DNA of 64,000 nt from Streptomyces antnestii (GTDB lineage: Bacteria > Actinomycetota > Actinomycetes > Streptomycetales > Streptomycetaceae): NCBI RefSeq assembly GCF_004005495.1, contig NZ_RZYA01000007.1:1-64000 (forward strand), given 5' to 3'. Shown here in pieces: positions 16,117 to 44,374 of this stretch. Numbering within the stretch: the first letter of the stretch is position 1; every line of letters begins with the position of its first letter. A program made the position numbers and the translations under genes. The notes under the pieces are model-generated. The model made no database searches and was not told where the DNA came from. It worked only from the letters and a program-made list of their open reading frames with translations.

Positions 16117-16130
16117 GGCGCAACTCCTGG

Positions 16131-24004: not shown

Positions 24005-25336
24005 TCAGCTCGTCCCGGCGGCGAGGACGCGGCGGGCGGCGAGCGTGGCCGAGTGGACGGCGGCCTCGCTGTTGGGGCGGAGCGCCACCCAGTCGCCGGC
24101 GTAGTCGACACGGCGCAGGGGGCGTTCGAGGAACGCCCGCCGCAGGCGCAGCGCGTCCGGTGTCGCTTCCGGCAGGCCGTTGGGCCAGCGCACCACGATG
24201 GCCGTACGCGTAGCCTCGGTCAGGCCCGGCAGATACCGCTCGGCGTGTGCGCTGACTTCGGACACGATCTCGTCGTCGGTACGTTCAAGCAGGCGCGCCG
24301 ACGCGTACGGCGAGACGAACAGGCTGAGCAGACCGCGGCCGGACGGTACCCGGTCGGGTGCCCTGATGTGGTCGAGGACGACTCCGGCGCACACCTGGTC
24401 ATCCGCGGCCCGGACATGAAGGGCGTAGGACGGCCGGCGGGTCGGGCTCGGCAGGGGTCGGTCCAGCAAGCACAGAACCTTCAGCATCGGGCGGTAGGTG
24501 CTCGCCGCCAGGTAGGGACGCTCGTCGTCCGGGACATCGGCGTGGAGCGTGAGCGCCACCGGCGCGGGCACGGCCAGCACGGCGCGTCCGGCGGTCACCG
24601 TCTTGCCATCGGCCAGGTCGAGGCTTACGGTGCGCGGGCCCGGCTTGACCGCGACGACTGCGTTTCCGGTGACGACGTCAAGGCGGTCGGCCAGCGCACG
24701 GGTCAGGGTGTCCATGCCGTTCCGGTAGGTCACCCAGCGCGCTCCGGCGCCGCCGACGGCGAGCAGCAGCGCGGCCATCGGACCGATCGCCGACCGCTCC
24801 GGTTGCCAGCCGAAGAAGCCACCGGCCATGGGCTGCAACAGGCAGTCGTACACGTCGCGGTGGTAGCGATGGGCGTATTCCGCGATGGTCGCGTCGCCCA
24901 GCGGTGTCGCCTCGGGGCGGTCCTGGTCGAAGCCGTTCCTGTGCCGCATGAGCGCCGCGGTGAACCGCAGCCAGGACAGCCGGCCGCGCCAGGACATTCC
25001 GGCGCCGGTCAGCAGACCCGCCGGATGACCGAAGTTGGCATGGGCGCGCCCGTCACGCCACAGCGCGATGCGGCCGCCCACCGGAACGACGGCGTCCTCG
25101 GCCAGGCCGACCGCCCGGATCAGCTGCCAGGTGTTGTCGTAGCCCCGGACCGCGATGCTCTCCGCGCCCTCGTCGAGGACAAAGCCCTCGTGGCGGCGGC
25201 CCGCCATCCGCCCGCCGACCCGGGTGCACGCCTCGTACACGCGCACCGATCTGCCGGTCTCCGCCAGGTGGAAGGCGGTGGCCAGGCCCGAGATCCCGGC
25301 CCCCACCACAGCGACGTCGACGTCTGTGTCAGCCAT
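24005..25336 (-). CDS. FAD-dependent oxidase resembling protoporphyrinogen/amine oxidases
   Basis: The 443-residue protein has the dinucleotide-binding N-terminus VAVVGAGISGLATAFHLAET and the second FAD motif VGGRMAGRRHEGFVLDEGAE. The C-terminal FAD segment reads VDYAGDWVALRPNSEAAVHS. Overall layout is that of protoporphyrinogen-oxidase-like flavoproteins. No heme genes are nearby, so a tailoring oxidation in the operon's own pathway is more likely than heme synthesis. It is the last gene of the methyltransferase-to-oxidase operon, after an 82-bp gap from the acyl-activating gene. Confidence 0.85.
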   Translation of the reverse strand: MADTDVDVAVVGAGISGLATAFHLAETGRSVRVYEACTRVGGRMAGRRHEGFVLDEGAESIAVRGYDNTWQLIRAVGLAEDAVVPVGGRIALWRDGRAHANFGHPAGLLTGAGMSWRGRLSWLRFTAALMRHRNGFDQDRPEATPLGDATIAEYAHRYHRDVYDCLLQPMAGGFFGWQPERSAIGPMAALLLAVGGAGARWVTYRNGMDTLTRALADRLDVVTGNAVVAVKPGPRTVSLDLADGKTVTAGRAVLAVPAPVALTLHADVPDDERPYLAASTYRPMLKVLCLLDRPLPSPTRRPSYALHVRAADDQVCAGVVLDHIRAPDRVPSGRGLLSLFVSPYASARLLERTDDEIVSEVSAHAERYLPGLTEATRTAIVVRWPNGLPEATPDALRLRRAFLERPLRRVDYAGDWVALRPNSEAAVHSATLAARRVLAAGTS

Positions 25337-25418
25337 CGGCAGTTCACCTCTCGTGTAGATATATCGATACGAACGCCCCGGGACTCGCGCGGTCCGCCCT
25401 CCGGAGCGGCGGTGCGGG

Positions 25419-27026
25419 TCAGGTCCAGTGCCCGCAGCCGTGCGGCGGGGCCCCGTCGAGCAGCCGGTCCCGCAGCTCCTGCCGCCGCACCTTGCCCGTC
25501 GCGGTGAGCGGAAGCTGGTCGAGGCGCAGGAGCGCCGGCTCGCCGAGGGGCGGCAGATCGGCCACGGCCCGCTGCCACGCCTCGCGGGCGAGCGTGCCGT
25601 CCCGGGTCACCAGGACCGGCAGCGGCAAACCGCTCGCCCGGCCGAGCACCACCGCCTCGACGACGTCCGGCAGCCGGTCGTGGAGCACGTCCTCGATCTC
25701 GACACAGCTGCCGCCCGGGACCGTGTCCACCTCGCGGTCGAGCAGGAGCATCCGGCCGGACCGGGTGGCGACGCCGAGGTCCCCGGTGGCGAACCAGCCA
25801 CCGGCGGACTTGGCCAGGAGCCGCTCCTGTTCACCTGCGTATCCCGCGCACAGGGCACGGGTACGCGCCATCACCAGGCCGGGCTCACCGCGCGGAACCC
25901 GCCGGTAGGTGACCGGGTCCACCACCCGCAGCCTCGTCCGGCCGGGAACCGGACGGCCCAGGTCGCGAGTTGTGGGGTGCCGCTCCCCGGACACGCGCAC
26001 CGACCTGCGGGTGAAGCAGCGGAAGGTGAGCGGCCCGGTCTCGGACTGCCCCCAGACCTGTACCCACAGCGGCAGGCGGCGGCGTGTGGCGGCGAGGTAG
26101 GTGCGCACCGTGGGCGGGTGGATCGCGTCGAAGGTGTTGATGTACAGGCGCACGTCACGGAACGGGTTGTCCGGTGCTGTGGCGAGCGACTGCCAGCGCA
26201 CGAAGGCCGAGGGGGTGGCCTCCAGGGTGGTCGGGGGGTGGGCGCGCAGGAGGGGTTCGGCATGCTGCGGATCGAAGCTGTCCAGGAGGAGCACCTTGCG
26301 CGGGGCGAGCCAGAACGCGCTGAGCGACCAGGTGAGGCCGCGCCCGTGGGCGTACGACGTGGCCTGGGCGACGGTGTCGTCGCGCCGGCTGGCCACCATC
26401 GGCCAGCGCCGTGCCTCGGCCGCGGCGAGCCGGTGGACCAGCGAGGTGGTGGTGTGGACGACCAGCTTGGGCGTCCCGGTGGTGCCCGAGGTGTGCATGA
26501 TGGCCAACGGGGCGTCGTCGGGGCGGCGTTGAGGGGGCGGCGGCCTGTGTCCGCGTACGTCCGCCAGAGGGACGGCGCCGGGGGCGGCGCCGGGCGCGGG
26601 GGCGTCGAGCGTGAGGGTGCGGCGGGTGAAGGCGGTCAGGTCGGTCCCGGCGGCGCGGGCGGCCGCGAGTGTGTCCGAGGTGGTGACCAGGGCGGTGGCG
26701 TCGAGGCGCTTCAGCAGCAGTTGGAGTGTCTCGGGAGGGAGGTTGCCGGAGATCAGCGCGGGCACCGCGCCGATGCGGGCGGCCGCGCAGGCGAGCAGGA
26801 CGTAGTCCCAGTGGTTGGGCTTGATCACGGCAACTCTGTCGCCCCGCGCGATGCCCAGACCGGCGAGCCAGCCCGCGGCTTGCGCCACCAGTTCGGCGAT
26901 GTTCTCGATGCCGTACGTCGTCCGGCCGTCGTGCGCGATGTCCAGCGGGCGGCTCAGGTGCACCTGCGTCCCGGTGCCGCGGTCGGCCAGGATGTCGAAG
27001 AACGGACCGGGTTCGAGCGATTTCAT
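25419..27026 (-). CDS. AMP-dependent acyl-CoA synthetase/ligase (second copy)
   Basis: The 535-residue member of the ANL superfamily should activate a carboxylic acid with ATP. Core motifs are the phosphate loop MHTSGTTGTPKLVV, WGQSETGPLT, GWFATGDLGV and the C-terminal catalytic Lys in LTATGKVRRQEL. No carrier-protein domain is attached, so the acyl group goes to CoA or to a separate acceptor. AAGGAC precedes the ATG at 27026. A 15-bp minisatellite separates it from the upstream UbiA gene. Confidence 0.9.
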   Translation of the reverse strand: MKSLEPGPFFDILADRGTGTQVHLSRPLDIAHDGRTTYGIENIAELVAQAAGWLAGLGIARGDRVAVIKPNHWDYVLLACAAARIGAVPALISGNLPPETLQLLLKRLDATALVTTSDTLAAARAAGTDLTAFTRRTLTLDAPAPGAAPGAVPLADVRGHRPPPPQRRPDDAPLAIMHTSGTTGTPKLVVHTTTSLVHRLAAAEARRWPMVASRRDDTVAQATSYAHGRGLTWSLSAFWLAPRKVLLLDSFDPQHAEPLLRAHPPTTLEATPSAFVRWQSLATAPDNPFRDVRLYINTFDAIHPPTVRTYLAATRRRLPLWVQVWGQSETGPLTFRCFTRRSVRVSGERHPTTRDLGRPVPGRTRLRVVDPVTYRRVPRGEPGLVMARTRALCAGYAGEQERLLAKSAGGWFATGDLGVATRSGRMLLLDREVDTVPGGSCVEIEDVLHDRLPDVVEAVVLGRASGLPLPVLVTRDGTLAREAWQRAVADLPPLGEPALLRLDQLPLTATGKVRRQELRDRLLDGAPPHGCGHWT

Positions 27027-27045
27027 CTCACGTCCTTGTCTCACT

Positions 27046-27135: not shown

Positions 27136-27138
27136 GGG

Positions 27139-28137
27139 TCAAACCGGGGCGGCCATCAGCAGGTTGGCCGCCACCAGCGCGGCGACCAGGACCCGGTGTG
27201 CCCGGATCCCGATGAGCCGGCCGCGCAGGATGTCGCCGCGCACGATGCCGACCGTGAACTGCGTGATGCGGGCCGCCGTCACGGGAAGGAGGGCCAGCGG
27301 GAACCACCACGGTGCGATCCCCAGGAGGGCCGCCGCGACGATCACCGCGGTCTCCAGGGCGGAGAGCGCGCCGATGAACACGGCGTTGCCGCGGCGGGAG
27401 AGCAGACACGCGACGGTGGGCCGCCCCACCGCACGGTCGCCGGCGATGTCGTTCGTGTTCGAGTACACGCCGAAGAGGAGCGGACCCAGGCCGAACAGGA
27501 AGGTCTCCACCGCGGCGAGGCCGGCCGCCTCGCCGGTGAGCAGGCCGTACAGCGGCAGCACGAAGAACCAGCCGACGGCGGCGAGGAACAACTCCTGGAA
27601 CCCCCGGTGGCCGAGTCGCAGGCCCCACGAGTACTGCGGGACGAGGAAACCGGCGGTCACGACGCTGAGCACGGCCCACATCGGCCGGTGGGGCGCGAGA
27701 TACAGAGCAGCCGCCCAGAACAGCACGCCGGCGGCGAGCACCGTGCCGGCGAAGCGGACGGCGTCCCTCTCGGTCAGGACGCCGGCCAGCAGCGGTTTAC
27801 GGGCGATTCTGCGCACCGGCGCGTCCGTACCGTAGTTCGCGAGATCGCTGCCGTCGCGGTACCCGGCGATGTCGTCCAGCGCGACCGACGCGCTGACCAG
27901 GCACACCTCGCCCAGCAGGAAGGCCGCCAGGGTCGCCACCGACGGTGCGTCGAGGTGGCGGCCGCTGAGGGGAAGCAGCGACACCACGACGAGCAGGCTC
28001 AGGTAGTAGTCGTACATGCCGAGCTTGGCCAGCCGCAGATAGGCGGGCAGACGCGCCGTCATGCGCCGGCCGGGCCGGGCGGCGAGCACACGGGGCGGGT
28101 GCGCGGTGGCGGTGCCCGTAGTCGTCTCACCGGCCAT
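27139..28137 (-). CDS. UbiA family prenyltransferase
   Basis: The 332-residue integral membrane protein has about eight or nine hydrophobic segments. It carries the two Asp motifs that bind Mg-prenyl diphosphate: SVALDDIAGYRDGSD (about 87-101) and YSNTNDIAGDRAVGRPT. UbiA enzymes join a prenyl chain to an aromatic or other acceptor. AGGGAG precedes the ATG at 28137. An alternative ATG at 28374 overlaps the stop of the upstream ligase (ATGA). It would add 79 residues including an 'APRSST'-type repeat; the shorter form fits the family better. The acceptor is unknown, but acyl-activating genes on both sides suggest a carboxylate. Confidence 0.88.
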   Translation of the reverse strand: MAGETTTGTATAHPPRVLAARPGRRMTARLPAYLRLAKLGMYDYYLSLLVVVSLLPLSGRHLDAPSVATLAAFLLGEVCLVSASVALDDIAGYRDGSDLANYGTDAPVRRIARKPLLAGVLTERDAVRFAGTVLAAGVLFWAAALYLAPHRPMWAVLSVVTAGFLVPQYSWGLRLGHRGFQELFLAAVGWFFVLPLYGLLTGEAAGLAAVETFLFGLGPLLFGVYSNTNDIAGDRAVGRPTVACLLSRRGNAVFIGALSALETAVIVAAALLGIAPWWFPLALLPVTAARITQFTVGIVRGDILRGRLIGIRAHRVLVAALVAANLLMAAPV

Positions 28138-28162
28138 GGATACTCCCTGCTCGCAGACCGTC

Positions 28163-28370: not shown

Positions 28371-30065
28371 TCATCGGGAGGCTCCCTCGCAGGTCGAGGC
28401 GGTACGCGGCACGTCCGGGCCTTGCGTGGCCGCGCGCCGCGCCAGGGTGCTTCGGCAGACCTTTCCGGTCGGACCGAGAGGCAGTTGATCCAGCGTCAGT
28501 AGCTGCTCGGGCAGCTTGCGGCGCTCCAGCCCCCGCTCGCGTTCCAGGAACGCCTGGAGCTCTTTGAGGGTGGGAGGTTCGGTGCCGGGGCGCTTCGCCA
28601 CGCAGGCACACATGCGCTCGCCGAGCTCGGGGTCGGGCACCGGGACGCAGGCCGCGTCGGCGATCCCCGGGTGCGCGCCGATGTGACGCTCGACCTCGGC
28701 CGGGCTGATCGTGTAGCCGCCGCGGATGACGGTGCTGCGGAGCCGGTCGAGCACCCACAACTCCCCGTCGCCGTCGACGAGTCCGCGATCCCCCGTCCGC
28801 ACCCAGCCGTCCGGGGTGCGGTGGGCGGCGTCGAGCTCGGGCGCACCCAGGTAGCACCGGGGTGTCATCGGGCCGCGGGCCTGGATCTCGCCCGCCTCCC
28901 CGGAGGGCAGCGGCCGGCCGTCCGGCCCGACGACGCGGATCTCGGCCACGGCGGGGTCGGCACGGCCTGCCCTGCGGGTGTCCGTGGCCGGACAGGCCCA
29001 TGTCGTATGGCAGTTGACGCCATCGGTCGATCCGTAGATGTTCACCACGGGGCAGCCGAATCTGCCGAGGGCGGCGCGCAGCGTCTCGGGCGGCAGGGGC
29101 GCGGCGCTGGAGACGACGGCGCGGAGCGACGAGAGGTCCTCGCCGGGCGTCCACGGCGCCTCCGCCATGCGGCGCAGCATCGTGGGTACGGCGAAGACGT
29201 GGCTCGGCCGATGCTCGGTCACGGCACTCAGCGCCAGGGTCGCCTCGAAGCGGTCCAGCAGCACGAGCGTCCCGCCGTGCCGGACGAGTACGACCAGGCC
29301 GAGCGAGCCGTACGAGGACGCGAGCGGCATCAGGACCAGGCATCGCAGGGGATCCGCGCCGCGGCGCAGAGCGCTGACGTAGTTGCCGCGGCCGCCGGCC
29401 AGGGCGTTGTGCGAGTAGGCGACCATCTTCGGCCGGTCCTCGGAACCGGAGGAGACCAGGATCCGGGCCGGTGTCTCCGCATCGACGGCGACCGGTTCCC
29501 ACGGCTCACCCTCCGGGCGGCCGACGAGCCACGGATCCAGCGGAACGCAGCCGTCCGGCGACGCGCCGAAGACGGCGACGGTCCGCAGGTACGGGAGGTC
29601 GGCTCGCAGGTCGGCCAGGGTCCGCGCGAGCGGGACGCCGTCCCATTCGGCCGTGGTGATCACGGCGCGGGCGCGCGACCTGCCGAGCAGGGCCAGGGAG
29701 TCCTGGCGGCCGCGCCCCACCGGATAGGGCAGCGCCACGGCACCGATCGCGGCCAGGGCGAGGTCCGCGGCAAGCGCCCGCCGGCCGCTGGGCAGTTGGA
29801 CGCCGACCACGTCGCCCGCGCCGATGCCGAGCGCCACGAACCCGGTGGCGAGGCGCCGGGCATGCCGGTCGAGAGTCGCGTAGTCGAGCGTCCCCTCAGG
29901 GTCGACGACAGCCGGGCGCTCGGGGTGGGCCACCACGTGCGCGCGGAACAGCGAGTAGAGGTCGCGGTCGGGCACGAGCCCCTGCTCGACGTACCGGCGG
30001 CGCAGTCGCGCCGGTACCCGGTCGGGTACGTCGATGCCTTGGGCCGATGCCCAGGTCGCCGTCAT
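28371..30065 (-). CDS. AMP-dependent acyl-activating enzyme (first copy)
   Basis: The 564-residue ANL-superfamily enzyme has an atypical phosphate loop, LVSSGSEDRPKMVAYSHN, in place of the usual TSGTTG-PK. VNIYGSTDGVN, DGWVRTGDRGLVD, the hinge DRLRSTVIRGGYTISPAEVE and C-terminal PTGKVCRST with the catalytic Lys follow. It resembles 2,3-dihydroxybenzoate-AMP-ligase-like or aryl-CoA ligases, but substrate cannot be assigned. The ATG at 30065 overlaps the CoA-transferase stop (ATGA). Confidence 0.9.
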   Translation of the reverse strand: MTATWASAQGIDVPDRVPARLRRRYVEQGLVPDRDLYSLFRAHVVAHPERPAVVDPEGTLDYATLDRHARRLATGFVALGIGAGDVVGVQLPSGRRALAADLALAAIGAVALPYPVGRGRQDSLALLGRSRARAVITTAEWDGVPLARTLADLRADLPYLRTVAVFGASPDGCVPLDPWLVGRPEGEPWEPVAVDAETPARILVSSGSEDRPKMVAYSHNALAGGRGNYVSALRRGADPLRCLVLMPLASSYGSLGLVVLVRHGGTLVLLDRFEATLALSAVTEHRPSHVFAVPTMLRRMAEAPWTPGEDLSSLRAVVSSAAPLPPETLRAALGRFGCPVVNIYGSTDGVNCHTTWACPATDTRRAGRADPAVAEIRVVGPDGRPLPSGEAGEIQARGPMTPRCYLGAPELDAAHRTPDGWVRTGDRGLVDGDGELWVLDRLRSTVIRGGYTISPAEVERHIGAHPGIADAACVPVPDPELGERMCACVAKRPGTEPPTLKELQAFLERERGLERRKLPEQLLTLDQLPLGPTGKVCRSTLARRAATQGPDVPRTASTCEGASR

Positions 30066-31774
30066 GCGGTGAACTCCCAGGGCCTGCCGGGCAGTACACA
30101 GTCGTCCCGGATCAGCGCGGCGCTGAAACGCGGGTCGGCGGCCAGCTCGGTGAGGTCGGTGCAGAGCGGGACCGGGGGCGCGGGCTGGCGCGGGTCGGAC
30201 GCGGCGCCGCGTCCGTGCGCGGTCAGTACCGTCGCGGCGGAGAGCAGGGAGGTGTGCACCCGTCGGCCGTGCCCGGTGGCGGCGCGCGCCAGCAGCGCGG
30301 CGAGCACTCCTTCCGCGCAGACCAGGCCGCCGAGCACATCGAGCAGCGTCATCAGTGAGGGGGTCGGTGGCTCGCCGGGCCGCGCGGTCAGCTCGGCAAG
30401 GCCGGCGCCGGCCTGCACCACGTAGTCGGTGCCGATCGGCGGGGTGGGGCCCATGGCGTCGCCCCAGCCGGACGCCCAGGCGTGGACGAGGCCGGGCCGG
30501 ACACCGGCCAGATCGGCGGCGTCGAGCTGCCATGCGGCCGCCTTGCCGGGGGCCCAGTTGTGCAGGAACACGTCCGCGTCGCGGACGAGTTCGCGCACCG
30601 TGCCGCGGCCACCGGGGGTGCGCAGGTCCGCCTCGACGGCCTCCTTGCCGCGGTTGAGCGCGAGGAACCGGGCCGAGCAGTCGCCCGCCATCGGTGCGGT
30701 TCCGCGCATCGGGTCGCCGCCCGGCGGTTCGACCCGGATCACCCTGGCCCCGAGCAGGGCGAGTGCGTGGCCGGCGAGCGGCCCCTGCACCCGCCCGGTG
30801 GACTCGACGACCACCAGCCCGGCGAGCGGTCGGTGCGGCGCGGGAGGCGGCACGGCGGGTGACAGCCCCGGGGTGGCGTGCCGGTCCGCGGGCAGTGGTG
30901 TGACGGTCCAGGGAGCCCGAGGCGGGGCGAGAAGCTCCTCCCGGCCGAGGTCGCGCACGCGCAGTACGCTGACGCCCGCTTGAGCGGCCGCGGTACGGAT
31001 CACGGAGTAGGGAGTCCGCGCGGTGGCGCGGTGGAGTTCGGCGGGGAGCGGGCAGACGCCGGTGGCGTACCGGTGCTGGAACGGCGGCCAGCCTCTGCGG
31101 ATCGCGGAAAGGTCGGCACCGAGCACGGCCCAGAACCGCTGCCACACCTCGGCGTCGAGCGTCTCGATCTCGAACCTGACCCCGTCGCCGCTGGTGAACG
31201 GTGGCGCGGCGGCATCCGGCGCGGTGGGCGGCGCCGGGATGCGCACGTCGTCGGCCGCGGTCGCCACCGCCAGGTACTGACCGACGGCGAGCAGGGCGCC
31301 CTGGGCGACGGAGGTGCGGACCTCGTCGATCCGTACGCCGCGCCTGGCGGCATGGAGAGCGGCGAGCGCACCGGTCACGGCGAGCACGCCGGTCACCGCT
31401 TCGGCGTAGTCGAGGCGGAGCGGCGTGGGTCGGCCGTACCTGCGCCCGTGCACGTGGGCGATGCCGCAGGCGGCCTGCACGTCGGCCTCGCTCGCCAGCG
31501 GCAGCTCGACCGGTCCCGCCCAGTCGATGGCGCAGGTGAGTACGTGCGGTTCGGCACCGGCACCGGCACCGCATGCGATGCCGAGGGTGCCCGCCCCCTC
31601 GGCATCGGGCCCCTGCGCGTCCTGGGCGATCTCGCAGCCGAGGCGCGCCAGGTGGTCCGCGGCGACGGCGAGCGCTGTCGAGCTGCCGACGGCCGTCGCC
31701 GAGGTCCCGGCCAGTGGCTGGTTCGGCTCGGACGTCCGTGGCGCGTCGGTGCTTACGACTTTGCCTACGGTCAT
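30062..31774 (-). CDS. Double-length class III CoA-transferase (CaiB/BaiF family)
   Basis: The 570-residue protein is longer than the usual ~400 of this family and appears to hold two CoA-transferase III modules. The second half has LAGLVVVESTGRVQGPLAGHA, LGARVIRVEPPGGDPMRG, FLALNRGKEAVEADLRTPGG and a conserved GTDYVVQAGAG. The first half retains RLDYAEAVTGVLAVTGALAA and a degraded C-terminal domain. The catalytic Asp region of such enzymes is near the start of the long conserved segment; which half is active is unclear. It would move CoA between acids without ATP. It is coupled by ATGA overlaps to genes on both sides. Confidence 0.85.
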   Translation of the reverse strand: MTVGKVVSTDAPRTSEPNQPLAGTSATAVGSSTALAVAADHLARLGCEIAQDAQGPDAEGAGTLGIACGAGAGAEPHVLTCAIDWAGPVELPLASEADVQAACGIAHVHGRRYGRPTPLRLDYAEAVTGVLAVTGALAALHAARRGVRIDEVRTSVAQGALLAVGQYLAVATAADDVRIPAPPTAPDAAAPPFTSGDGVRFEIETLDAEVWQRFWAVLGADLSAIRRGWPPFQHRYATGVCPLPAELHRATARTPYSVIRTAAAQAGVSVLRVRDLGREELLAPPRAPWTVTPLPADRHATPGLSPAVPPPAPHRPLAGLVVVESTGRVQGPLAGHALALLGARVIRVEPPGGDPMRGTAPMAGDCSARFLALNRGKEAVEADLRTPGGRGTVRELVRDADVFLHNWAPGKAAAWQLDAADLAGVRPGLVHAWASGWGDAMGPTPPIGTDYVVQAGAGLAELTARPGEPPTPSLMTLLDVLGGLVCAEGVLAALLARAATGHGRRVHTSLLSAATVLTAHGRGAASDPRQPAPPVPLCTDLTELAADPRFSAALIRDDCVLPGRPWEFTA

Positions 31775-35157: not shown

Positions 35158-35191
35158 CTCATGCGCCGGGGGCCACCGGCGCATGAGTCAC
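35154..35191. terminator. Bidirectional terminator containing both convergent stop codons
   Basis: A perfect 16-bp inverted repeat (35154-35169 and 35176-35191) with a 6-nt loop. The plus-strand TGA (35155-35157) lies in its left arm and the minus-strand TGA (35188-35190) in its right arm. Confidence 0.9.
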
Positions 35192-37805: not shown

Positions 37806-38834
37806 ATGTACCGCACTCTCGTCGTCGGGCTCGGCCGCGCCGGTACCGGTCTGCATCTGCCCACTCTGGACCGGCTGCGCAAGGGGACCCGCGCGGGCAC
37901 ACTGTTCGCCGGAGCACCGATGGTGGCCGTCGATCCAGTGCCCGCGCCCGCCACCCTCCCGCCGGGCACCGTCCGGTTGCCGACCCTGGAACTGGCGCGC
38001 GCCGAACTCGACCCGCAGCGAACCGTCGTCCACGTGTGCACGCCGCCGGACGGCCGCGACGCCGTGATCGAACGCCTTGCCCGGCTCGGGTTCGTCAACC
38101 TGCTCGTGGAGAAGCCGCTGACGGCGGACACCGCCCAGCTCACCCGGATCGAAGACCTCCGCCGGCAGTACGGGTTGCGGCTTGTCGTGGTCGCGCAGTG
38201 GCTGGTCAGCAGCCTGACCGGGCGGCTCAAGGACCACGTGGCCACCGGCGAGTTCGGTGCGCTCCGCGCGATCCGCGTCGTCCAGCGCAAACCGCGCTTC
38301 AGTCGCAGCCTGGCCACTTCGGGCCATCCGACCGCCTTCGACGTCGAGATCCCGCACGCGCTGGGCGTGGCCCTGGACCTGGCCGGGCCCGCCCGGTTGA
38401 CCGACGCCGCCTGGTCGGACCTGAGGACGGACGTTGCCGTACGTCCCCGCCTGGGCACCGCGACGCTGCGCCTGACCCACGAGGGGGGTGCCTCGACCCG
38501 TATCGCCTCGGACCTGACGGCGCCGGTCCGCGAGCGGCGGATCACCTGCGAGTTCACCGAAGCGACCGTCGTGGGCCACTACCCGATCAGCCAGGACGAC
38601 GGGTTTGCCCAACTCGCCGTCGAAGGGCGCGAGTTCACGAAGCGTGAGGTGTTCCCCGACGACGCGCTGCCCGAGTTCTTCCGCCATGCCTACCAACGCT
38701 TCGCCGACGGCGGGGAGTTCGGCATCGACCTGGCGGCGCGGACGGTACGCCTTGTGGACGAGGCCAAGCAGCTCTGCCTCCTGCGCGAGCGGCCGACTCC
38801 CCTCCCGGCCGGAGCGGTGCGCGATGCCGGCTGA
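37806..38834 (+). CDS. Gfo/Idh/MocA family oxidoreductase (copy 1)
   Basis: The 342-residue protein has N-terminal Rossmann TLVVGLGRAGTGLHLPTL, the family EKP motif in NLLVEKPLTADT and RLVVVAQWLVSSLTGRL. An alpha/beta domain with FDVEIPHALGVALDL follows. Members oxidise or reduce sugars, cyclitols or nucleotide sugars with NAD(P). The spacing of GLGRAG in the loop is slightly unusual. ATG at 37806 follows GGGGGAGG. It starts the rightward seven-gene operon; the next gene overlaps it by 11 bp. Confidence 0.88.
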   Translation: MYRTLVVGLGRAGTGLHLPTLDRLRKGTRAGTLFAGAPMVAVDPVPAPATLPPGTVRLPTLELARAELDPQRTVVHVCTPPDGRDAVIERLARLGFVNLLVEKPLTADTAQLTRIEDLRRQYGLRLVVVAQWLVSSLTGRLKDHVATGEFGALRAIRVVQRKPRFSRSLATSGHPTAFDVEIPHALGVALDLAGPARLTDAAWSDLRTDVAVRPRLGTATLRLTHEGGASTRIASDLTAPVRERRITCEFTEATVVGHYPISQDDGFAQLAVEGREFTKREVFPDDALPEFFRHAYQRFADGGEFGIDLAARTVRLVDEAKQLCLLRERPTPLPAGAVRDAG

Positions 38835-39786
38835 CGCCCCGCATGCCCTCGCCCCCGCCCCCGCCTGCGCCCCCGCCCTCGCCCCCGCCCTCGCCCTCGC
38901 CGGAATCGGCGACGAGGCGGGGTACGGGATCCACGCCCAGGTGGCCGCGGTCCGGGCCCTCGGCTGGGACACGATCGAGCTGCGCACCGTCGACGGAATC
39001 CCCCTGGCCGACCTCACCGAACCGGCGTTCGCACAGGTGGTCGCCGCGGTCGAGGACGCCGGGCTGCGGGTGGTCGCGGTCTGCTCGCGGATCGGCGGGT
39101 GGTCGAGGTCGGCGGACCAGGACGTCACCGCCGACCTTGCCGAACTCCGCGTCCTGAGCCGACGCTGCCGCACCCTTGGGACCCGTCATGTCCGGATCAT
39201 GTCCTACCCGAGCGGGGGGCTCGCCGAGCCCCTGTGGCGCGCGGCCGTGATCGAGCGGACCAAGGCACTCGCGGACCACGCGGAGCGCACCGGCCTGAGC
39301 CTGCTGCACGAGAACTGCGCCGGCTGGGCCGGAACCAGCGCCTTGCGCATGCGCGACCTGCTGGACGCCGTGAACAGCCCCGCGCTCGGCCTGCTGTTCG
39401 ACACCGGCAACGGCATCGCCTATGACTACTCCGCCTATGACCTGCTCGGCGAGATCATCGAGTGGGTCCGGCACGTCCACATCAAGGACGCCATCACGGA
39501 CGCCATCACGGACGCAGAATGCCCGGCCGAGGCTCCGCGGTACTGCCTGCCGGGCCACGGCCAGTCACGGGTCGCGGACTGCCTGCGCCTGCTGCTCGAC
39601 GCCGGCTACACCGGCGCACTGTCGATCGAGCCGCACCTGGCCGTGGTCCCGCACGAAGGCCGACGGGCCCCCGACGCCGAGTGCGCCGCCGCGTTCACCG
39701 CCCACGGGCGGGCGCTCACCGACCTGCTGGCAGGGCTCACCGCCGAGCGCCCCCGCAGCGCCGCTGCCACGGGAGGGGCTCGATGA
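38824..39786 (+). CDS. Sugar-phosphate isomerase/epimerase-like TIM-barrel protein
   Basis: The 320-residue AP-endonuclease-2-type barrel has HAQVAAVRALGWDTIELRTV, VVAVCSRIGGW, HVRIMSYPSGG, SLLHENCAGWAG, LGLLFDTGNGIAYDYSA, WVRHVHIKDA and TGALSIEPHLAVV. The Glu, Asp, His and Glu metal ligands (H-E-N, D-T-G-N, H-I-K-D, I-E-P-H) are preserved. It probably isomerises or dehydrates a sugar or cyclitol. The ATG at 38824 lies inside the preceding gene. An Ala/Pro-rich leader is encoded by short CCGCCC/CTCGCC repeats (38844-38901). Confidence 0.88.
   Translation: MPADAPHALAPAPACAPALAPALALAGIGDEAGYGIHAQVAAVRALGWDTIELRTVDGIPLADLTEPAFAQVVAAVEDAGLRVVAVCSRIGGWSRSADQDVTADLAELRVLSRRCRTLGTRHVRIMSYPSGGLAEPLWRAAVIERTKALADHAERTGLSLLHENCAGWAGTSALRMRDLLDAVNSPALGLLFDTGNGIAYDYSAYDLLGEIIEWVRHVHIKDAITDAITDAECPAEAPRYCLPGHGQSRVADCLRLLLDAGYTGALSIEPHLAVVPHEGRRAPDAECAAAFTAHGRALTDLLAGLTAERPRSAAATGGAR
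38844..38901 (+). repeat. GCCCCC/GCCCTC hexamer repeats coding an Ala-Pro/Ala-Leu leader
   Basis: About nine hexamers of GCCCCC or GCCCTC type encode APAPACAPALAPALALA near the N-terminus of the TIM-barrel protein. The tract is in frame and low in complexity. Confidence 0.85.
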
Positions 39787-41180
39787 CCGCTCCCCTCGTC
39801 GGCCGCGCCGACCACGAACTGCTCCTGGATCTGCTGCATCTGCCCACGGCGGGACCGCTCGAGACCGGCGCCGACCTGCCCGCGCCGGAACTGTGGGCGG
39901 CGCAGCGCCGGTACGCCGAGCACGCCGCTGCCCTCGGTTTCGCGGTGCGCCACCACGCACCCTCGCGTCCCGAGGACATCGAGGCGGACGATGTGCCGCT
40001 CGCGGTGCGCGAGGCCGTGCAGGCCGGCCCCGGATTCCTCGCCTGCCAGCCCAGCCTGGTCCTTGAGCTGGGCGCGGCACATACGCGAGACCGGACCGTC
40101 ATGTTCAACGTGCACCTGGACACCGTGGCCGGCATGGAACAAGTCGGCTTCGACGGACGGCGGTTCACCGGCCGGGGCGCGGTCGACGCCAAGGGACCCG
40201 CCGTCGGCCTGCTCGCCGGGATCAGGGCTGCGCTGGCCGAACGGCCCGGCCTCGCCCGCGACATCCGCATCCTCGTCCAGGCGGTCGCCGGCGAGGAGGG
40301 CGGCGCGCTGGGCACGATCGGCACCCGGCCGCTGGTCGAGCGGGGCTGGTACGGCCGCCTCAACGTGTTCTGCGAACCGACCGGCCTGCGCTATCTCCCC
40401 CGGGCCAGCGCGGCGATGACCGCCTGTGTGCGCGTCGAAGGTGACGACGCCATCGACGACCGGCCCGAGCACGGACACAACGCCACGGTGCTCCTGGGCT
40501 ACTTGGCGCAGCACCTGGGCCTGGTCCTGCCACCGCTGGCCGCCGAGGGGCGCGTGTGCGTCGCCGGACTGACGACCGGCCCCCTGCACAACCGCGTGTA
40601 CGGCCGCGGCGCGCTGCTGCTCAACCTCTCGTACACGAACGCCGAGACGGCGCGCCGCCTCGAAAGCGCCACAACTGACGCCCTGCACGAGGGACTCGCG
40701 GCCTTCCGCGCCCGCTTCGGCGCCGTGCGCGAGCTCGCCCGTACCGCTCGGGACGCCGCCGCGATCACCCGCCTGCACTGGCGGAAGAGGGGAATTCCCG
40801 CGCTCACGGGCACCTCGCCCTGGGCCGAGCGGCTGCTCGGCGAGGCGGCCGGCATCGGCCGCTGGCCCGACGACGAAGCCGCGTTCACCTGCGACGCGAT
40901 CTGGCTGGCCGACCGCGAGGACGCGGCGACGGTGGTGTACGGGCCCGGATCGCTGGAGGGCAACCACGCGCACGCGCAGGGGGAGTACGTCGATCTGGCC
41001 GACCTGGAGTCGTTCGCCGCCGGCATCGCGAGGATCCTGCTCGCGTTCCACGACGACTGTGCCAACGACAACTGTGTCGAGGACAGCTGCGTCAATGACG
41101 GCCGCGTCAACGACAGCTGCGTCGACGACACCGAAAGCACCTGTATCAGCAGCGCCGGAAGCAAGGAGCCGTCACGGTGA
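39783..41180 (+). CDS. M20 family metallohydrolase
   Basis: The 465-residue protein has the dizinc M20 layout: MFNVHLDTVAG (His, Asp), GRGAVDAKGPAVGL (bridging Asp), VQAVAGEEGGALGT (Glu-Glu catalytic and ligand), a CEPT segment and a late EGNHAHAQGEYV (His). Family members remove acyl or amino-acid groups from amides. In a pathway with amino-sugar genes it may remove a protecting acyl group. The ATG at 39783 overlaps the previous stop (ATGA). A Cys-containing C-terminal tail of four 'DSCVN' repeats follows the catalytic domain and is absent from ordinary relatives. Confidence 0.87.
   Translation: MTAPLVGRADHELLLDLLHLPTAGPLETGADLPAPELWAAQRRYAEHAAALGFAVRHHAPSRPEDIEADDVPLAVREAVQAGPGFLACQPSLVLELGAAHTRDRTVMFNVHLDTVAGMEQVGFDGRRFTGRGAVDAKGPAVGLLAGIRAALAERPGLARDIRILVQAVAGEEGGALGTIGTRPLVERGWYGRLNVFCEPTGLRYLPRASAAMTACVRVEGDDAIDDRPEHGHNATVLLGYLAQHLGLVLPPLAAEGRVCVAGLTTGPLHNRVYGRGALLLNLSYTNAETARRLESATTDALHEGLAAFRARFGAVRELARTARDAAAITRLHWRKRGIPALTGTSPWAERLLGEAAGIGRWPDDEAAFTCDAIWLADREDAATVVYGPGSLEGNHAHAQGEYVDLADLESFAAGIARILLAFHDDCANDNCVEDSCVNDGRVNDSCVDDTESTCISSAGSKEPSR
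41067..41126 (+). repeat. 15-bp in-frame repeats coding a DSCVN tail
   Basis: Four tandem 15-bp units encode D-N/S/G-C/R-V-E/N/D at the end of the M20 protein. They keep the frame and give a Cys- and Asp-rich extension. Confidence 0.85.
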
Positions 41181-42427
41181 TCGGAACGAGCGCACCCACC
41201 GAAGTGCGCATCCCCTACGAGCAGTTGCTCGACCTCGTCACCGCCGTCTTCGCCGCGCGCGGCCTGCCTCAGGACAGAGCGCGACAGGCGTCCGAAGCGC
41301 TCTGCTACGGCGACCTGGCCGGCTTCGGCTCGCACGGCACCGCCAACCTGTCCCGGCTCTATCTGCCGCTGCTCGACGACGGACGCGCCGACCCGGCCGG
41401 CTCCCCCGTCGTCCTGGCCGATCATGGCGCGGCCCTCCTCGTCGACGCGCGGCGCGCACTGGGCCTGTGGCAGGCGAGCGAGGCCATGGACCTGGCGATC
41501 GAGCGGGCGGCGCGGTTCGGGGTCGGCCTGGTCTCCGTCCGGAACGGGACACACTTCGGCTGCGCCGGCTACCACGCCCGGCGCGCCGCCGAGCAGGGCA
41601 TGGTGGGCCTGGTGGCGTCCAACTGCGGCGGGCAGCGCATCGCCCGCCCGCCCGGCGGCCGGGTGACGTTGCTGGGCACCAACCCGCTGAGCATCGCCGC
41701 GCCCGCCGGCCCGCACCCGCCGTTCGTCCTCGACATGAGCACCACCGCGGTACCGACCGGGCGGGTGCGGGCGGCGGCCCGTGCCGGCCGGACGGTCCCG
41801 CCGGGGTGGCTCGCCGACGAGGAGGGCCGGCCGGTGACCGACCCGGCGGCCTTCGACCGTGGTGAGGCGCACCTGCTCTGGCTCGGCGCGTCGAGCGGCG
41901 GCGACCACAAGGGGTTCGGACTCGGCCTGATGGTGGAGGTGCTCGCCGCCCTGGTCTCCGGCTCCGGTGCCGGTCCCGCCACCGAGGCACTGTCCGGCGA
42001 CGGCCGCCCGTCGGGCCGGGACGACGACATCGGCATGCTGATGGTGGCGATCGCGCCCGGCCTGCTGCGCGGGCCGGAGGCCGTGATCCGGGACGCGGAG
42101 CAGCTGTTCGGCACCGTACTGGCCTGCCCCCCGGTCGACGAGAGCGCCCCCGTCGGCTACCCCGGCCGGCCGGAGGCGGAGCGGGCCCGGCTCCACCGCG
42201 AGCACGGCGTCCCGGTGGAGCCGGTGGTCCACCACGAACTGGCCGGGCTCGCCGCGACGCTCGGCCTGCCGTTCCCGGCAGATACGTCCGACCCGTTCCC
42301 GGCAGAAACGTCCGACCCGTTCCCGGCGGATACATCCGACCTGCCGCGCCCATCCGACACCTCCGACCAGCCGTTGCCAACCGACACCTCCGACCTGCCG
42401 TTCCCGGCGCGAGCGGGGCAGCGGTGA
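41177..42427 (+). CDS. Ldh family (malate/lactate/ureidoglycolate dehydrogenase-type) oxidoreductase
   Basis: The 416-residue protein of the LDH2/MDH2 family has GDLAGFGSHGTANLSRL with the conserved His, SVRNGTHFGCAGYHA, GTNPLSIAAPA, VLDMSTTAVPTGRV and GDHKGFGLGLMVEVL. The family reduces 2-keto acids or oxidises 2-hydroxy acids or imines with NAD(P) and is unrelated to classical LDH. GTG at 41177 overlaps the previous stop (GTGA). Its last ~50 residues are tandem PFPADTSD repeats (42269-42394), an extension outside the fold. Confidence 0.88.
   Translation: MIGTSAPTEVRIPYEQLLDLVTAVFAARGLPQDRARQASEALCYGDLAGFGSHGTANLSRLYLPLLDDGRADPAGSPVVLADHGAALLVDARRALGLWQASEAMDLAIERAARFGVGLVSVRNGTHFGCAGYHARRAAEQGMVGLVASNCGGQRIARPPGGRVTLLGTNPLSIAAPAGPHPPFVLDMSTTAVPTGRVRAAARAGRTVPPGWLADEEGRPVTDPAAFDRGEAHLLWLGASSGGDHKGFGLGLMVEVLAALVSGSGAGPATEALSGDGRPSGRDDDIGMLMVAIAPGLLRGPEAVIRDAEQLFGTVLACPPVDESAPVGYPGRPEAERARLHREHGVPVEPVVHHELAGLAATLGLPFPADTSDPFPAETSDPFPADTSDLPRPSDTSDQPLPTDTSDLPFPARAGQR
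42269..42394 (+). repeat. 24/27-bp in-frame repeats coding PFPADTSD
   Basis: Three 24-bp units (42269-42340) encode PFPADTSD or PFPAETSD. Two degenerate 27-bp units follow (42341-42394). They form a disordered acidic C-terminal tail on the Ldh-type enzyme. Confidence 0.92.
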
Positions 42428-43380
42428 GGGGGCCGCGGCGGATCGCCGTCGTCGGACTCGGGGCGATCTCCCGGTTCTACCTGGCCGCGATCGAGGCATC
42501 GCCCGCCTGGCAACTGGCCGCGGTGTGCGACGTGTCGCCCGAGAGGCTGCGCCCCCACGGAGAGAGCCTGCCGGTCTACACGGACCACCGCGCGATGCTC
42601 GCCGGGGCAGAGTTGGACGCGGTGGTGGTCACCGTCCCCAACGACGTGCACGCGTCGATCGCGGCGGATGTGATCGCCGCGGGTGTCCCGGTGTGCGTGG
42701 AGAAGCCGCTGGCCACCCGGCTTGAGGACGCCGAGTCGCTGGTGGCGGCGGCCAGGGCGCGTGGGGTGTGCCTGTTCACCGCGTTCCACCGCCGCTACAA
42801 CCACGAAATCACGGCCCTGCACCGCGAGTTGCGCACCGCGGCGGCACCGGTCGAGGTCACCATCCGCTACCTGGAACGGATCGAGGAACACATCGGCGGT
42901 GACGCCTGGTACCTGGACCCCACGCGGTGCGGCGGCGGCTGTGTCGCCGACAACGGGCCGAACGCCTACGACCTCGCCCGGCTGCTGACCGGCGACGTGA
43001 GCGTCGAGCACGCGCAGGTGACGTGGGACGCGCAGGGCGTGGACCGGCGCGCCACGGTGCGGCTGCGTTCCGGCAGCGGAGTACCGGTGCGCGTCGAGCT
43101 CGACTGGTCCTACCCGGGCGAGGTGAAGGACGCCACGGTCCGGCTGGCGGACGGCTCGGTGCGCACGGCGGACATGCTGCGCGGGTTCCCCGAGTTCAAG
43201 GGCTCGCTGTGGCACGAGTACGTCGGTGTGCTCGACGACTTCGAGCAGGCGATCCGGGAGCGCGGCGACCGCGGCGGCGACGGTTTCGCCGCGCTCGCGC
43301 TGACCGAGCGGACGTACCAACTCGCGCACCCCGGTGCGGTGTCGGGATCCCCGACGGCTCAGGAGGTGCCTGCGCGGTGA
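42424..43380 (+). CDS. Gfo/Idh/MocA family oxidoreductase (copy 2)
   Basis: The 318-residue protein has RIAVVGLGAISRFYLAAIE, PNDVHASIAADVIAAGVPV, the EKP motif CVEKPLATRLEDAE, FTAFHRRYNHEIT and GGGCVADNGPNAYDLARLL. The position of copy 1's catalytic His motif is here occupied by DNGPNAYD. It is a typical single-unit sugar dehydrogenase otherwise. GTG at 42424 overlaps the previous stop (GTGA). With copy 1 and two aminotransferases it could supply the keto intermediates for amination. Confidence 0.88.
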   Translation: MRGPRRIAVVGLGAISRFYLAAIEASPAWQLAAVCDVSPERLRPHGESLPVYTDHRAMLAGAELDAVVVTVPNDVHASIAADVIAAGVPVCVEKPLATRLEDAESLVAAARARGVCLFTAFHRRYNHEITALHRELRTAAAPVEVTIRYLERIEEHIGGDAWYLDPTRCGGGCVADNGPNAYDLARLLTGDVSVEHAQVTWDAQGVDRRATVRLRSGSGVPVRVELDWSYPGEVKDATVRLADGSVRTADMLRGFPEFKGSLWHEYVGVLDDFEQAIRERGDRGGDGFAALALTERTYQLAHPGAVSGSPTAQEVPAR

Positions 43381-43886
43381 CCGTGGAAAGCGGCGGCAAG
43401 CGAGCGGTCCACGGGATCCTGGTCAAGGTCCTGATCCATCGCAGGGACGATCGCGGCATGCGCATGGAGGAGTTCGCCGGCCGGTGCGTGCGCCGCGGTG
43501 AGGTCCACGAGCTGGTGACCACGGACCAGCAGGACACCGCGCCCGGAGCCCGGGTGGACCGGGTCGGTTTCCTCGGCTTCGCGGAAATCGGCTGCGCCGG
43601 TGTCCTCGACCGGGGCGACGAGGTCTGGATCGACGGCCAACTGGTGGGCACCGTCCTCGGCTTCGACTCCTGCCACTTCCCCAACCACTACAACATCCTG
43701 ATCTCCGTCCCGGAACCGGTGACCGGGCGCGACCTCGCGCTGCGGCCGGAGACCGAGGTGCGGTTCGTGCCCACCGACGTGACCCCGGAGCCGCGCCCGG
43801 ACCACCACACCGCCGCCATGCCCCTACTCATGCCCGTGCCCATGCCCACGACCCGCTCGGTCGACGACCTCGAGGAGACACCATGA
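43377..43886 (+). CDS. Conserved protein of unknown function (possibly DUF6917)
   Basis: The 169-residue protein has a compact core (about 10-130) with AVHGILVKVLIHRRDDRG, EVHELVTTDQQDTAPGARVD, RVGFLGFAEI and TVLGFDSCHFPNHYNILI. A Pro/Met-rich tail (MPLLMPVPMPTTRS) follows. I associate this core with a domain of unknown function seen in actinobacterial gene clusters, perhaps DUF6917, but cannot verify it. It looks like a small beta-rich ligand-binding protein. GTG at 43377 overlaps the previous stop and its own stop overlaps the next start, so it is firmly part of the operon. Confidence 0.65.
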   Translation: MTVESGGKRAVHGILVKVLIHRRDDRGMRMEEFAGRCVRRGEVHELVTTDQQDTAPGARVDRVGFLGFAEIGCAGVLDRGDEVWIDGQLVGTVLGFDSCHFPNHYNILISVPEPVTGRDLALRPETEVRFVPTDVTPEPRPDHHTAAMPLLMPVPMPTTRSVDDLEETP

Positions 43887-44374
43887 CCCCCGACCTCACC
43901 AACGCCCCGGTCGTCGACCGGGTGGACGCGGTGGCCGCCGCGCCCGACGTCTACCAGGCCATGGTCGCCTTCCAGCAGGTGGCCGGGAAGGGGCTCGACC
44001 CGCTCCTCGCCGAGCTGGTGCGCCTCCGCGTTTCGCAGATCAACGGCTGCACCTTCTGCATGGACCTGCACACACGCGCGGCGCGGGAGGCCGGCGAGAG
44101 CGAGCAGCGTCTCGACGCACTCCCGGCCTGGCGCGAGTCGACGCTGTTCGCCCCCGCGGACCGGGCCGCGCTCGCCCTCTGCGAGGCCCTGACCCTGTTG
44201 CCCGAGGCCGGGGTCCCCGACGCCGTGTACAAGGAGGCGGCCGCCTGCTTCGACGAGACCAGCCTCACCCACCTGCTGTGGACGGCCGCGGCGACCAACG
44301 TCTGGAACCGGATCGGCGTCGCCACGGCCATGGGCAGGCGCACGACGCAGCGCCCGGAAGCACAGGGAACCTGA
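43883..44374 (+). CDS. AhpD-like carboxymuconolactone decarboxylase family protein
   Basis: The 163-residue all-helical protein has the AhpD redox core RVSQINGCTFCMDLHTRAA (CxxC plus downstream His) and ESTLFAPADRAALALCEALT. The C-terminal SLTHLLWTAAATNVWNRIGV also matches the family. This type is found as alkylhydroperoxidase-related and often carries peroxidase activity. Its ATG overlaps the previous stop. It is the last gene of the operon, followed by a strong terminator. A redox or protective role in the pathway is a guess. Confidence 0.88.
   Translation: MTPDLTNAPVVDRVDAVAAAPDVYQAMVAFQQVAGKGLDPLLAELVRLRVSQINGCTFCMDLHTRAAREAGESEQRLDALPAWRESTLFAPADRAALALCEALTLLPEAGVPDAVYKEAAACFDETSLTHLLWTAAATNVWNRIGVATAMGRRTTQRPEAQGT

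What the first reader, a model, noticed from the sequence alone, without database searches (positions are those of the whole stretch)
24005..44374. Unassigned specialised-metabolism locus combining acyl activation, prenylation and amino-sugar chemistry
Two gene sets lie next to each other. The first is methyltransferase, double CoA-transferase III, two ANL ligases, UbiA prenyltransferase and PPO-like oxidase. The second is UDP-sugar 6-dehydrogenase, two DegT aminotransferases, two Gfo/Idh enzymes, TIM-barrel isomerase, M20 hydrolase, Ldh-type enzyme, unknown protein and AhpD-like protein. No polyketide or peptide synthase and no glycosyltransferase is seen. The combination does not match any product class I know. 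Dehydrogenase plus Gfo/Idh plus DegT recalls the WbpA/WbpB/WbpE route to amino-uronic acids (established), but the whole pathway is inference.
Basis: partly seen in the sequence, partly recalled or inferred. Interest (0 to 1): 0.78.

Follow-up and report, generated by a model that had tools for sequence, protein, structure and literature searches.

The report
Prenylated amino-sugar metabolite gene cluster
A recurring but apparently undescribed set of bacterial genes seems to turn a nucleotide amino sugar into an unusual nitrogen-rich acid and attach an isoprenoid chain to it, pointing to a family of natural products still to be isolated.

Summary
A related UbiA prenyltransferase (40% identity or more) is in 27 of 29 genomes with DUF6917, against 3 of 264 without. 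The second half (UDP-HexNAc-type dehydrogenase, two Gfo/Idh, two DegT, TIM barrel, M20, Ldh_2, DUF6917) is a portable cassette. It usually comes with UbiA, AMP-ligase and flavin oxidase, but in 4 loci with a tryptophan operon, and in 3 (without Ldh_2) with an enolase-like gene. Fusions pair g37 with g38 and g34 with g35. Best reading: the cassette builds an amino-acid-like block from UDP-GlcNAc-uronate; UbiA, not a glycosyltransferase, joins it to an isoprenoid; ligases, CoA-transferase and methyltransferase finish it. The linkage is shown; chemistry and product are inference. Searches of the held library found no matching paper; MIBiG and most subscription journals could not be searched. Caution: the window's PPO-ligase-UbiA trio has closer relatives (74-80%) in a small locus without the cassette, so it may have been swapped in. 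Verdict: real, a new variant of a known kind.

The parts
24005..25336 (-). g22, PPO/HpnE-like FAD amine oxidase
   Evidence: Pfam PF01593 3.7e-45; relatives (40-57%) in 13 of 14 long-flank genomes; 80% relative in a stand-alone trio
25419..27026 (-). g23, AMP-forming ligase of ANL family
   Evidence: PF00501 4.9e-52; TSGTTG and PLTATGK motifs; 13 of 14 genomes
27139..28089 (-). g24, UbiA-family membrane prenyltransferase
   Evidence: PF01040 6.9e-15; Asp motifs DDIAGYRD and NDIAGD; 14 of 14 genomes; linkage test
28371..30065 (-). g25, second AMP-forming ligase with C-terminal domain; atypical P-loop (SSGSEDRPK) but A10 lysine present
   Evidence: PF00501 1.3e-61, PF13193 1.8e-11; motifs read; 11 of 14 genomes
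30062..31774 (-). g26, double CoA-transferase family III protein
   Evidence: PF02515 1.6e-67, two stretches; 4-bp overlaps with both neighbours; 11 of 14 genomes
31771..32598 (-). g27, SAM methyltransferase
   Evidence: PF08241 1.2e-15; 14 of 14 genomes
32689..33009 (-). g28, small secreted-type protein (106 aa, signal-like N-terminus judged by eye)
   Evidence: Translation; relatives in 55 of 119 loci; no Pfam match for the called 70-aa part
33075..33566 (-). g29, secreted-type 163-aa protein
   Evidence: No Pfam; relatives in 2 of 119 loci and one (63%) beside the stand-alone UbiA trio in G135; membership in the cluster uncertain
33901..35157 (+). g30, nucleotide-sugar 6-dehydrogenase, UDP-HexNAc type
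   Evidence: TIGR03026 6.6e-116, above cut-off; GGHC motif; PDB nearest 4r16 and Cap5O
35188..36321 (-). g31, DegT aminotransferase (SFVQVK...GEGG type)
   Evidence: PF01041 3.6e-93; motif classes
36318..37466 (-). g32, DegT aminotransferase (SFFPTKTLGALGDAG type, DesV/WbpE-like)
   Evidence: PF01041 6.5e-117; PDB nearest 2oga, 7b0d, WbpE
37806..38834 (+). g33, Gfo/Idh-like oxidoreductase, start corrected
   Evidence: PF01408 at threshold for the shorter call; N-terminus with GLGRAG; 105 of 119 loci
38824..39786 (+). g34, xylose-isomerase-like TIM barrel
   Evidence: PF01261 6.7e-30; in one frame with the g35 homologue in 8 of 106 loci
39783..41180 (+). g35, M20 metal-dependent amidohydrolase
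   Evidence: PF01546 9.6e-15; HLD and EE motifs
41204..42427 (+). g36, type-2 malate/lactate dehydrogenase (Ldh_2)
   Evidence: PF02615 2.3e-99; SHG motif; not found in the variant loci L174, L175, L178
42424..43380 (+). g37, Gfo/Idh oxidoreductase
   Evidence: PF01408 3.5e-26; in one frame with the g38 homologue in 8 of 111 loci
43377..43886 (+). g38, DUF6917, all-beta protein with CHxPNHYN motif
   Evidence: PF21891 3.4e-57; alignments; AF2 model mean pLDDT 87.8
43883..44374 (+). g39, CMD/AhpD-like protein
   Evidence: PF02627 6.4e-22; CxxC; optional, 12 of 119 loci

Best explanation
One biosynthetic gene cluster for a prenylated metabolite whose polar head is an amino-acid-like acid built from a UDP-N-acetylhexosamine. 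Proposed order (inferred): g30 oxidises C6 to a uronate; the Gfo/Idh enzymes and the two DegT enzymes carry out two rounds of keto formation and transamination on the sugar; g34 isomerises, epimerises or dehydrates and g35 removes the N-acyl group as a coupled step; g37 and g38 (DUF6917) act as a second coupled step; g36 adjusts the oxidation state next to the acid. UbiA (g24) joins the block to a prenyl diphosphate, taking the place of a glycosyltransferase. g23, g25 and g26 activate carboxylates and pass acyl/CoA groups, g27 methylates, g22 oxidises. Shown: the genes, their conserved linkage, the swapping of partner sets, the fusions, expected motifs in most of the enzymes checked. Inferred: substrate, order, position of every reaction, product.
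For: All six first-half genes beside the cassette in 11 of 14 genomes. UbiA (at least 40% identity) in 27 of 29 DUF6917 genomes against 3 of 264 others, the window's own genome included, Fisher p 1.5e-32; on the same contig within 25 kb in 26 of 27. DXS, IspG, IspH or polyprenyl synthase genes in view of the cassette in 14 of 107 core loci. UDP-HexNAc-type dehydrogenase. Fusions g37::g38 in 8 of 111 loci holding both and g34::g35 in 8 of 106; the first confirmed by Pfam in L055. Cassette beside ATP-grasp ligase genes in G208, L171 and L173 and L178 (two with L-amino acid ligase C-terminal domain above cut-off), which suggests an amino-acid-like product. Relatives of the UbiA (43-46%) sit with NDP-hexose genes and isoprenoid-supply genes in G281 and G197.
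Against: No substrate or product is known. UbiA-family members usually prenylate aromatics (recalled); sugar acceptors are rare. 31 of 107 core loci show no first-half gene at 40% identity within the roughly 10-kb view: 7 are other types (L055, L171-L175, L178), 8 have at least UbiA further out (L031, L032, L039, L067, L096, L103, L104, L124), and 16 were not followed. The window's g22-g24 are closer (74-80%) to a stand-alone trio in G135 than to those of the 14 long-flank genomes (38-59%), so the trio can exist without the cassette. g25 has an atypical P-loop. The absence of a glycosyltransferase in the G281/G197 loci rests on four genes scanned and the rest judged by eye from N-terminal stretches.
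Confidence: 0.5

Rival explanations
1. The cassette makes a heteroaromatic amino acid (an aminopyrrole- or aminopyridine-carboxylate) from the amino sugar, as pyrrolamide producers are thought to do; UbiA then prenylates an aromatic ring as it usually does.
For: UbiA enzymes are mostly aromatic prenyltransferases (recalled); pyrrolamides use 4-acetamidopyrrole-2-carboxylate that an amidohydrolase deacetylates (passages of PMC4047045; its sugar origin is recalled), which g35 could parallel; in G208 the cassette follows TrpF, TrpD, TrpC, TrpB and TrpA with no TrpE/G found in the 40 kb read, as if it fed an anthranilate analogue.
Against: In the three other tryptophan-type loci TrpE and TrpG are present too, so plain tryptophan supply is simpler. 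No carrier protein or NRPS. No aromatising enzyme identified.
Confidence: 0.2
2. An aminocyclitol (inosamine) type pathway: IolG-like Gfo/Idh, IolE-like TIM barrel and inosose aminotransferase-like DegT enzymes act on an inositol, and the product is then acylated and prenylated.
For: Best NCBIfam matches of g37 and g34 are inositol 2-dehydrogenase and inosose dehydratase, and 7b0d (glutamine--scyllo-inositol transaminase) is among the top two PDB matches of both DegT.
Against: Those NCBIfam matches are far below cut-off (75 of 355 and 27 of 290 bits); g30 and M20 have no evident role there; no cyclase, inositol kinase or amidinotransferase among the 40 genes scanned.
Confidence: 0.1
3. A cell-wall or capsule sugar pathway of the WbpA/WbpB/WbpE kind beside an unrelated prenyl/acyl cluster.
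For: Dehydrogenase, Gfo/Idh and DegT families match that route.
Against: No WbpD-like acetyltransferase, glycosyltransferase or flippase in the 40 genes scanned; patchy distribution, 29 of 293 genomes of the order; the two halves are linked.
Confidence: 0.05
4. The locus already has a published product in literature that the library does not hold, for example a known hybrid isoprenoid whose cluster was named under other gene names.
For: The marker is common (52 of 392 genomes sampled in the genus), so somebody may have met the cluster; only open-licence papers could be searched.
Against: DUF6917/PF21891 is in 0 held papers; term combinations around UbiA, DegT, EF-hand, amino sugar, meroterpenoid and amino acid ligase listed nothing that fits.
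Confidence: 0.15

Closest known systems
WbpA/WbpB/WbpE route to UDP-diamino-uronic acids (Pseudomonas O-antigen; recalled)
   Same: UDP-HexNAc 6-dehydrogenase, Gfo/Idh, DegT of a WbpE-like kind
   Different: Here no acetyltransferase, glycosyltransferase or export seen; plus TIM barrel, M20, Ldh_2, DUF6917, a second DegT and prenyl/acyl genes
Pyrrolamide clusters (congocidine, distamycin)
   Same: Actinomycete cluster thought to convert an amino sugar into a carboxylic-acid building block (sugar origin recalled; passages of PMC4047045 seen on the pyrrole precursor and its deacetylation)
   Different: Pyrrolamides are joined by NRPS domains; none here
ebo operon (EboA-F)
   Same: UbiA-superfamily enzyme plus a xylose-isomerase-like TIM barrel; authors predict an isoprenoid-cyclitol hybrid (passages of PMC5133447)
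   Different: ebo has a sugar-phosphate cyclase-family EboD and a phosphodiesterase-like EboF; no dehydrogenase, DegT or Gfo/Idh mentioned in the passages seen
Decaprenylphosphoryl-5-phosphoribose synthase (UbiA family, mycobacteria)
   Same: A UbiA-superfamily enzyme using a prenyl phosphate (passage of PMC5133447) and joining it to a sugar phosphate (recalled)
   Different: Primary cell-wall metabolism; here a sugar-derived acceptor is only proposed
C-glycoside cleavage DgpA/DgpB/DgpC
   Same: Gfo/Idh 3-dehydrogenase plus TIM barrel plus a small beta protein (arrangement recalled); DgpA is among the PDB matches of g37 (E 3.6e-10)
   Different: DUF6917 shows no sequence or fold match to a solved small subunit, and neither of the two listed matches of g34 is named as a DgpB/C chain; this does not exclude a relation

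Membership tests
WbpA/B/E diamino-uronate pathway | UDP-HexNAc 6-dehydrogenase | tested here: met
   TIGR03026 above cut-off; UDP-ManNAc dehydrogenase models score highest among the specific ones, though below their own cut-offs; PDB 4r16 and Cap5O nearest. Family level only; substrate not assayed
WbpA/B/E diamino-uronate pathway | WbpB-like 3-dehydrogenase | tested here: inconclusive
   g37 matches the UDP-GlcNAc 3-dehydrogenase model at 66.9 bits, cut-off 450
WbpA/B/E diamino-uronate pathway | WbpD-like N-acetyltransferase | tested here: not met
   No such domain in the 40 genes scanned
WbpA/B/E diamino-uronate pathway | Polysaccharide glycosyltransferases and export nearby | tested here: not met
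   None in the 40 genes scanned
Pyrrolamide biosynthesis | NRPS condensation, adenylation-PCP and free PCP proteins | tested here: not met
   No condensation or carrier domain
Streptomycin-type aminocyclitol pathway | Inositol-derived substrate with kinase and amidinotransferase genes | tested here: not met
   No such domains in the 40 genes scanned; IolG/IolE matches far below cut-off
UbiA prenyltransferase superfamily | UbiA domain with two Asp-rich motifs | tested here: met
   PF01040 55.4 bits, cut-off 34.2; motifs
UbiA prenyltransferase superfamily | Aromatic acceptor | not testable with these tools
   No acceptor known; no PDB relative by sequence at E up to 5
ebo operon | EboD sugar-phosphate cyclase-like protein | tested here: not met
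   No such domain
DgpA/B/C-type 3-keto-glycoside cleavage | DUF6917 shares the fold of the small beta subunit | tested here: inconclusive
   Foldseek found nothing at E below 0.1; best VIA-align Z 4.3
Hybrid isoprenoid biosynthetic gene clusters | Prenyltransferase within a conserved co-localised set, with isoprenoid-supply genes in some members | tested here: met

The most novel reading that the evidence does not exclude
A clade of actinobacterial UbiA enzymes serves as the coupling enzyme between isoprenoids and nucleotide-sugar-derived blocks, in place of glycosyltransferases. The block itself comes from a new, portable amino-acid pathway with DUF6917 as a previously unknown enzyme acting directly on the product of its Gfo/Idh partner. 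The same block is also used in peptide-ligase clusters, so one cassette feeds several undiscovered natural-product classes.
Probability: 0.25. Interest if true: 0.85.

Novelty: new variant of a known kind. Interest (0 to 1): 0.62.

Why it matters
Its marker is in about a tenth of sampled genomes of the window's order (29 of 293) and in Lentzea, Amycolatopsis, Saccharopolyspora and others, yet no product turned up in the literature that could be searched, so it is a good target for product discovery. It has no polyketide or peptide synthase, so rule-based cluster finders may miss it (inference). The reuse of the cassette with different partners lets the building block be sought in whichever host makes it most readily, and the fusions say which enzymes to assay together.

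Tried and rejected
Anthranilate-analogue idea: raised by G208, where the cassette follows TrpF/D/C/B/A without TrpE/G in the stretch read; weakened when TrpE and TrpG were found in the three other tryptophan-type loci. Kept only as part of a rival.

DgpB/DgpC analogy for g34 and g38: no sequence match, no fold match of DUF6917 (Foldseek best E 0.14; VIA-align best Z 4.3). Neither shown nor excluded; absence from the lists is no evidence.

The second structure job, a natural Gfo/Idh::DUF6917 fusion from L058, gave two mostly confident domains with a disordered linker (315-352) and pTM 0.67; the domain interface was not analysed.

tRNA-Pro inside the cluster: rejected as a tandem repeat. Nitropyrrolin/heronapyrrole as product: biosynthesis stated to be unresolved (passages of PMC10897937); no link found. 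Azatryptophan and prenylated trehalose: searches listed nothing useful.

A control for g26 (CoA-transferase) across 293 genomes could not be run.

Counts are conditional on DUF6917, since the loci were found through it. One search kept the best 80 of 203, which favours the prenyl type. 8 of 127 loci were dropped as duplicates; the short loci L001-L029 were not counted. Presence needs E 1e-8 and 40% of the query length; at 40% identity the count of core loci with a first-half gene in view falls from 77 to 76 of 107.

Full report
WHAT IS THERE. Gene calling gives 56 genes in the window; 40 were scanned with Pfam. On the minus strand, from the right: methyltransferase g27, double CoA-transferase III g26, AMP-ligase g25, UbiA g24, AMP-ligase g23, PPO-like oxidase g22. 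Then nucleotide-sugar dehydrogenase g30 (+), two DegT g31 and g32 (-), and the plus-strand run g33 Gfo/Idh, g34 TIM barrel, g35 M20, g36 Ldh_2, g37 Gfo/Idh, g38 DUF6917, g39 CMD/AhpD, all but one of the joints overlapping by a few bases. g33 starts at 37806, giving a complete Rossmann motif, and g28 is a 106-aa secreted-type protein at 32689-33009. Simple motif patterns are met in g30, both DegT, g33, g35, g36, g37, g23, g24, g22, g27, g38 and g39; g25 has an atypical P-loop but keeps the A10 lysine. No glycosyltransferase, PKS or NRPS domain was seen in the 40 genes.

ONE CLUSTER, NOT TWO. DUF6917 was used as a marker. It occurs in 29 of 293 genomes of the order, 52 of 392 of the genus, only in the window's own genome among 396 drawn across the phylum, and 203 stretches in the named genome collection encode a relative, of which the best 80 were kept (Streptomyces, Lentzea, Saccharopolyspora, Amycolatopsis, Kitasatospora, Saccharothrix and others). 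Of 127 loci, 119 were distinct; g37 is in 111, g34 in 108, g35 and g36 in 107, DegT and g33 in 105, and 93 have all of g32-g38. 76 of 107 core loci (those with g35 and g37) show at least one of g22-g27 at 40% identity within the roughly 10-kb view. With longer flanks, 11 of 14 genomes hold all of g22-g27; these also hold g30-g38, except that g30 was not found in G227. The other three (G213, G150, G173) lack g25 and g26 but carry DXS and polyprenyl synthase, two of them also IspG and IspH. UbiA at 40% identity or more is in 27 of the 29 DUF6917 genomes and in 3 of the other 264 (p 1.5e-32, the window's genome included); in 26 of 27 it lies on the same contig within 25 kb. The two DUF6917 genomes without it, G208 and G242, have different neighbourhoods. 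The same control for g26 failed to run.

THE CASSETTE IS MODULAR. Four loci (L055/G208, L171/G911, L172/G729, L173/G827) have the cassette directly after TrpC, TrpB and TrpA genes and before a B3/4 editing-domain gene; ATP-grasp genes were seen in G208 (L157), L171 and L173. In G208 these trp genes are additional to a separate trpC-trpA pair. TrpE and TrpG accompany three of the four, not G208 in the stretch read. In L174, L175 and L178 an NDP-dehydrogenase, g33, DegT, TIM, M20 and Gfo/Idh::DUF6917 come with an enolase-like gene (Pfam in L174, by eye in L175 and L178) and without Ldh_2; in L178 two ATP-grasp proteins with L-amino acid ligase domains are added and the second DegT is short, while in L174 and L175 no ATP-grasp gene was seen. 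In L176, L177 and L185 DUF6917 stands without the rest of the cassette near an ATP-grasp gene. So the cassette product seems to be something that peptide-type ligases can use, most simply an amino acid (inference).

COUPLED STEPS. g37 and g38 lie in one open frame in 8 of the 111 loci holding both, including a locus with the window's own gene order (L058), and g34 and g35 in 8 of 106; g33 and g34 do so in one. Pfam confirms the first fusion in L055. Such fusions often join consecutive steps (general knowledge, recalled). DUF6917 is modelled as an all-beta protein at high confidence, with an invariant CHxPNHYN core in the alignments, without a matching solved fold found.

THE PRENYL SIDE. Relatives of g24 also occur elsewhere: with a sugar nucleotidyltransferase, a 4,6-dehydratase-type gene and an NDP-hexose 2,3-dehydratase plus DXS, IspG, IspH and polyprenyl synthase in G281 (L193) and, by similarity and by eye, G197 (L194), and with NDP-dehydrogenase, two DegT, AMP-ligase, PPO and polyprenyl synthase in a second G173 locus (L199, L195). 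I recognised no glycosyltransferase among those genes, but most were judged by eye only. This recurrent company suggests that the UbiA enzyme itself joins sugar-derived blocks to isoprenoids, as decaprenylphosphoryl-phosphoribose synthase does (recalled). It is not shown.

RESULTS AGAINST. The window's g22, g23 and g24 are 74-80% identical to a stand-alone trio in G135 (L191, with a g29 relative at 63%), and g24 and g23 are 71-75% identical to a pair in G156 (L192), but only 38-59% to those of the long-flank genomes. So the prenyl trio here may have been exchanged, and it can exist without the cassette. The EF-hand protein found in 75 of 119 loci is absent from the window. 31 of 107 core loci show no first-half gene in view: seven are the tryptophan and enolase-like types, eight have at least UbiA further out, and 16 were not followed.

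LITERATURE. DUF6917/PF21891 is in none of the held papers. Searches combining UbiA, DegT, EF-hand, amino sugar, meroterpenoid, nucleotide sugar and amino acid ligase listed nothing that fits. Only passages were seen of PMC11195616, PMC5133447, PMC4047045, PMC10897937 and PMC4650096. MIBiG and most subscription journals could not be searched, so 'undescribed' is limited to this library.

CONCLUSION. Established by sequence: one conserved cluster with a reusable amino-sugar cassette and a UbiA/ANL/PPO partner set. Inferred: UDP-HexNAc-uronate as intermediate, an amino-acid-like block, prenyl coupling by UbiA, acyl activation and methylation.

Noticed in passing
window 27030-27145: Tandem repeat of a 15-base unit (cggatccgggttccg, read by eye) in the gap between g23 and g24, called as a tRNA-Pro by ARAGORN.
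   Followed up: partly
window 47289-50317: Two adjacent styrene-monooxygenase-like genes (52% identical), the second fused to a flavin reductase domain, near an AraC-type regulator resembling AndR at 45962-46831.
   Followed up: no
window 14461-22531: Oligopeptide-type ABC transporter with amidohydrolase and penicillin-acyltransferase-like genes beside the cluster; a second transporter set of that kind around 56727-62151. Not seen as a constant neighbour of the cassette.
   Followed up: no
L053:10376-10909 and relatives: EF-hand protein of about 177 aa in 75 of 119 cassette loci, but not in the window. Role unknown.
   Followed up: partly
L055:10273-10947 and L171:10237-10902: B3/4 editing-domain protein next to the tryptophan-type cassette in 4 of 4 loci; could be self-protection against a mischarged amino acid analogue (inference).
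   Followed up: no
L176, L177, L185, L056: DUF6917 without the cassette, near ATP-grasp genes (L176, L177, L185) or, by eye, with threonine-synthase-like and thiamine-enzyme-like genes (L056, L176).
   Followed up: no
L191:6439-11115: Stand-alone PPO, AMP-ligase, UbiA and secreted-protein set, 63-80% identical to window g22, g23, g24, g29.
   Followed up: partly
L193 and L194: UbiA with NDP-hexose 2,3-dehydratase, sugar nucleotidyltransferase and DXS, IspG, IspH and polyprenyl synthase genes: a second undescribed-looking sugar-isoprenoid cluster type.
   Followed up: partly
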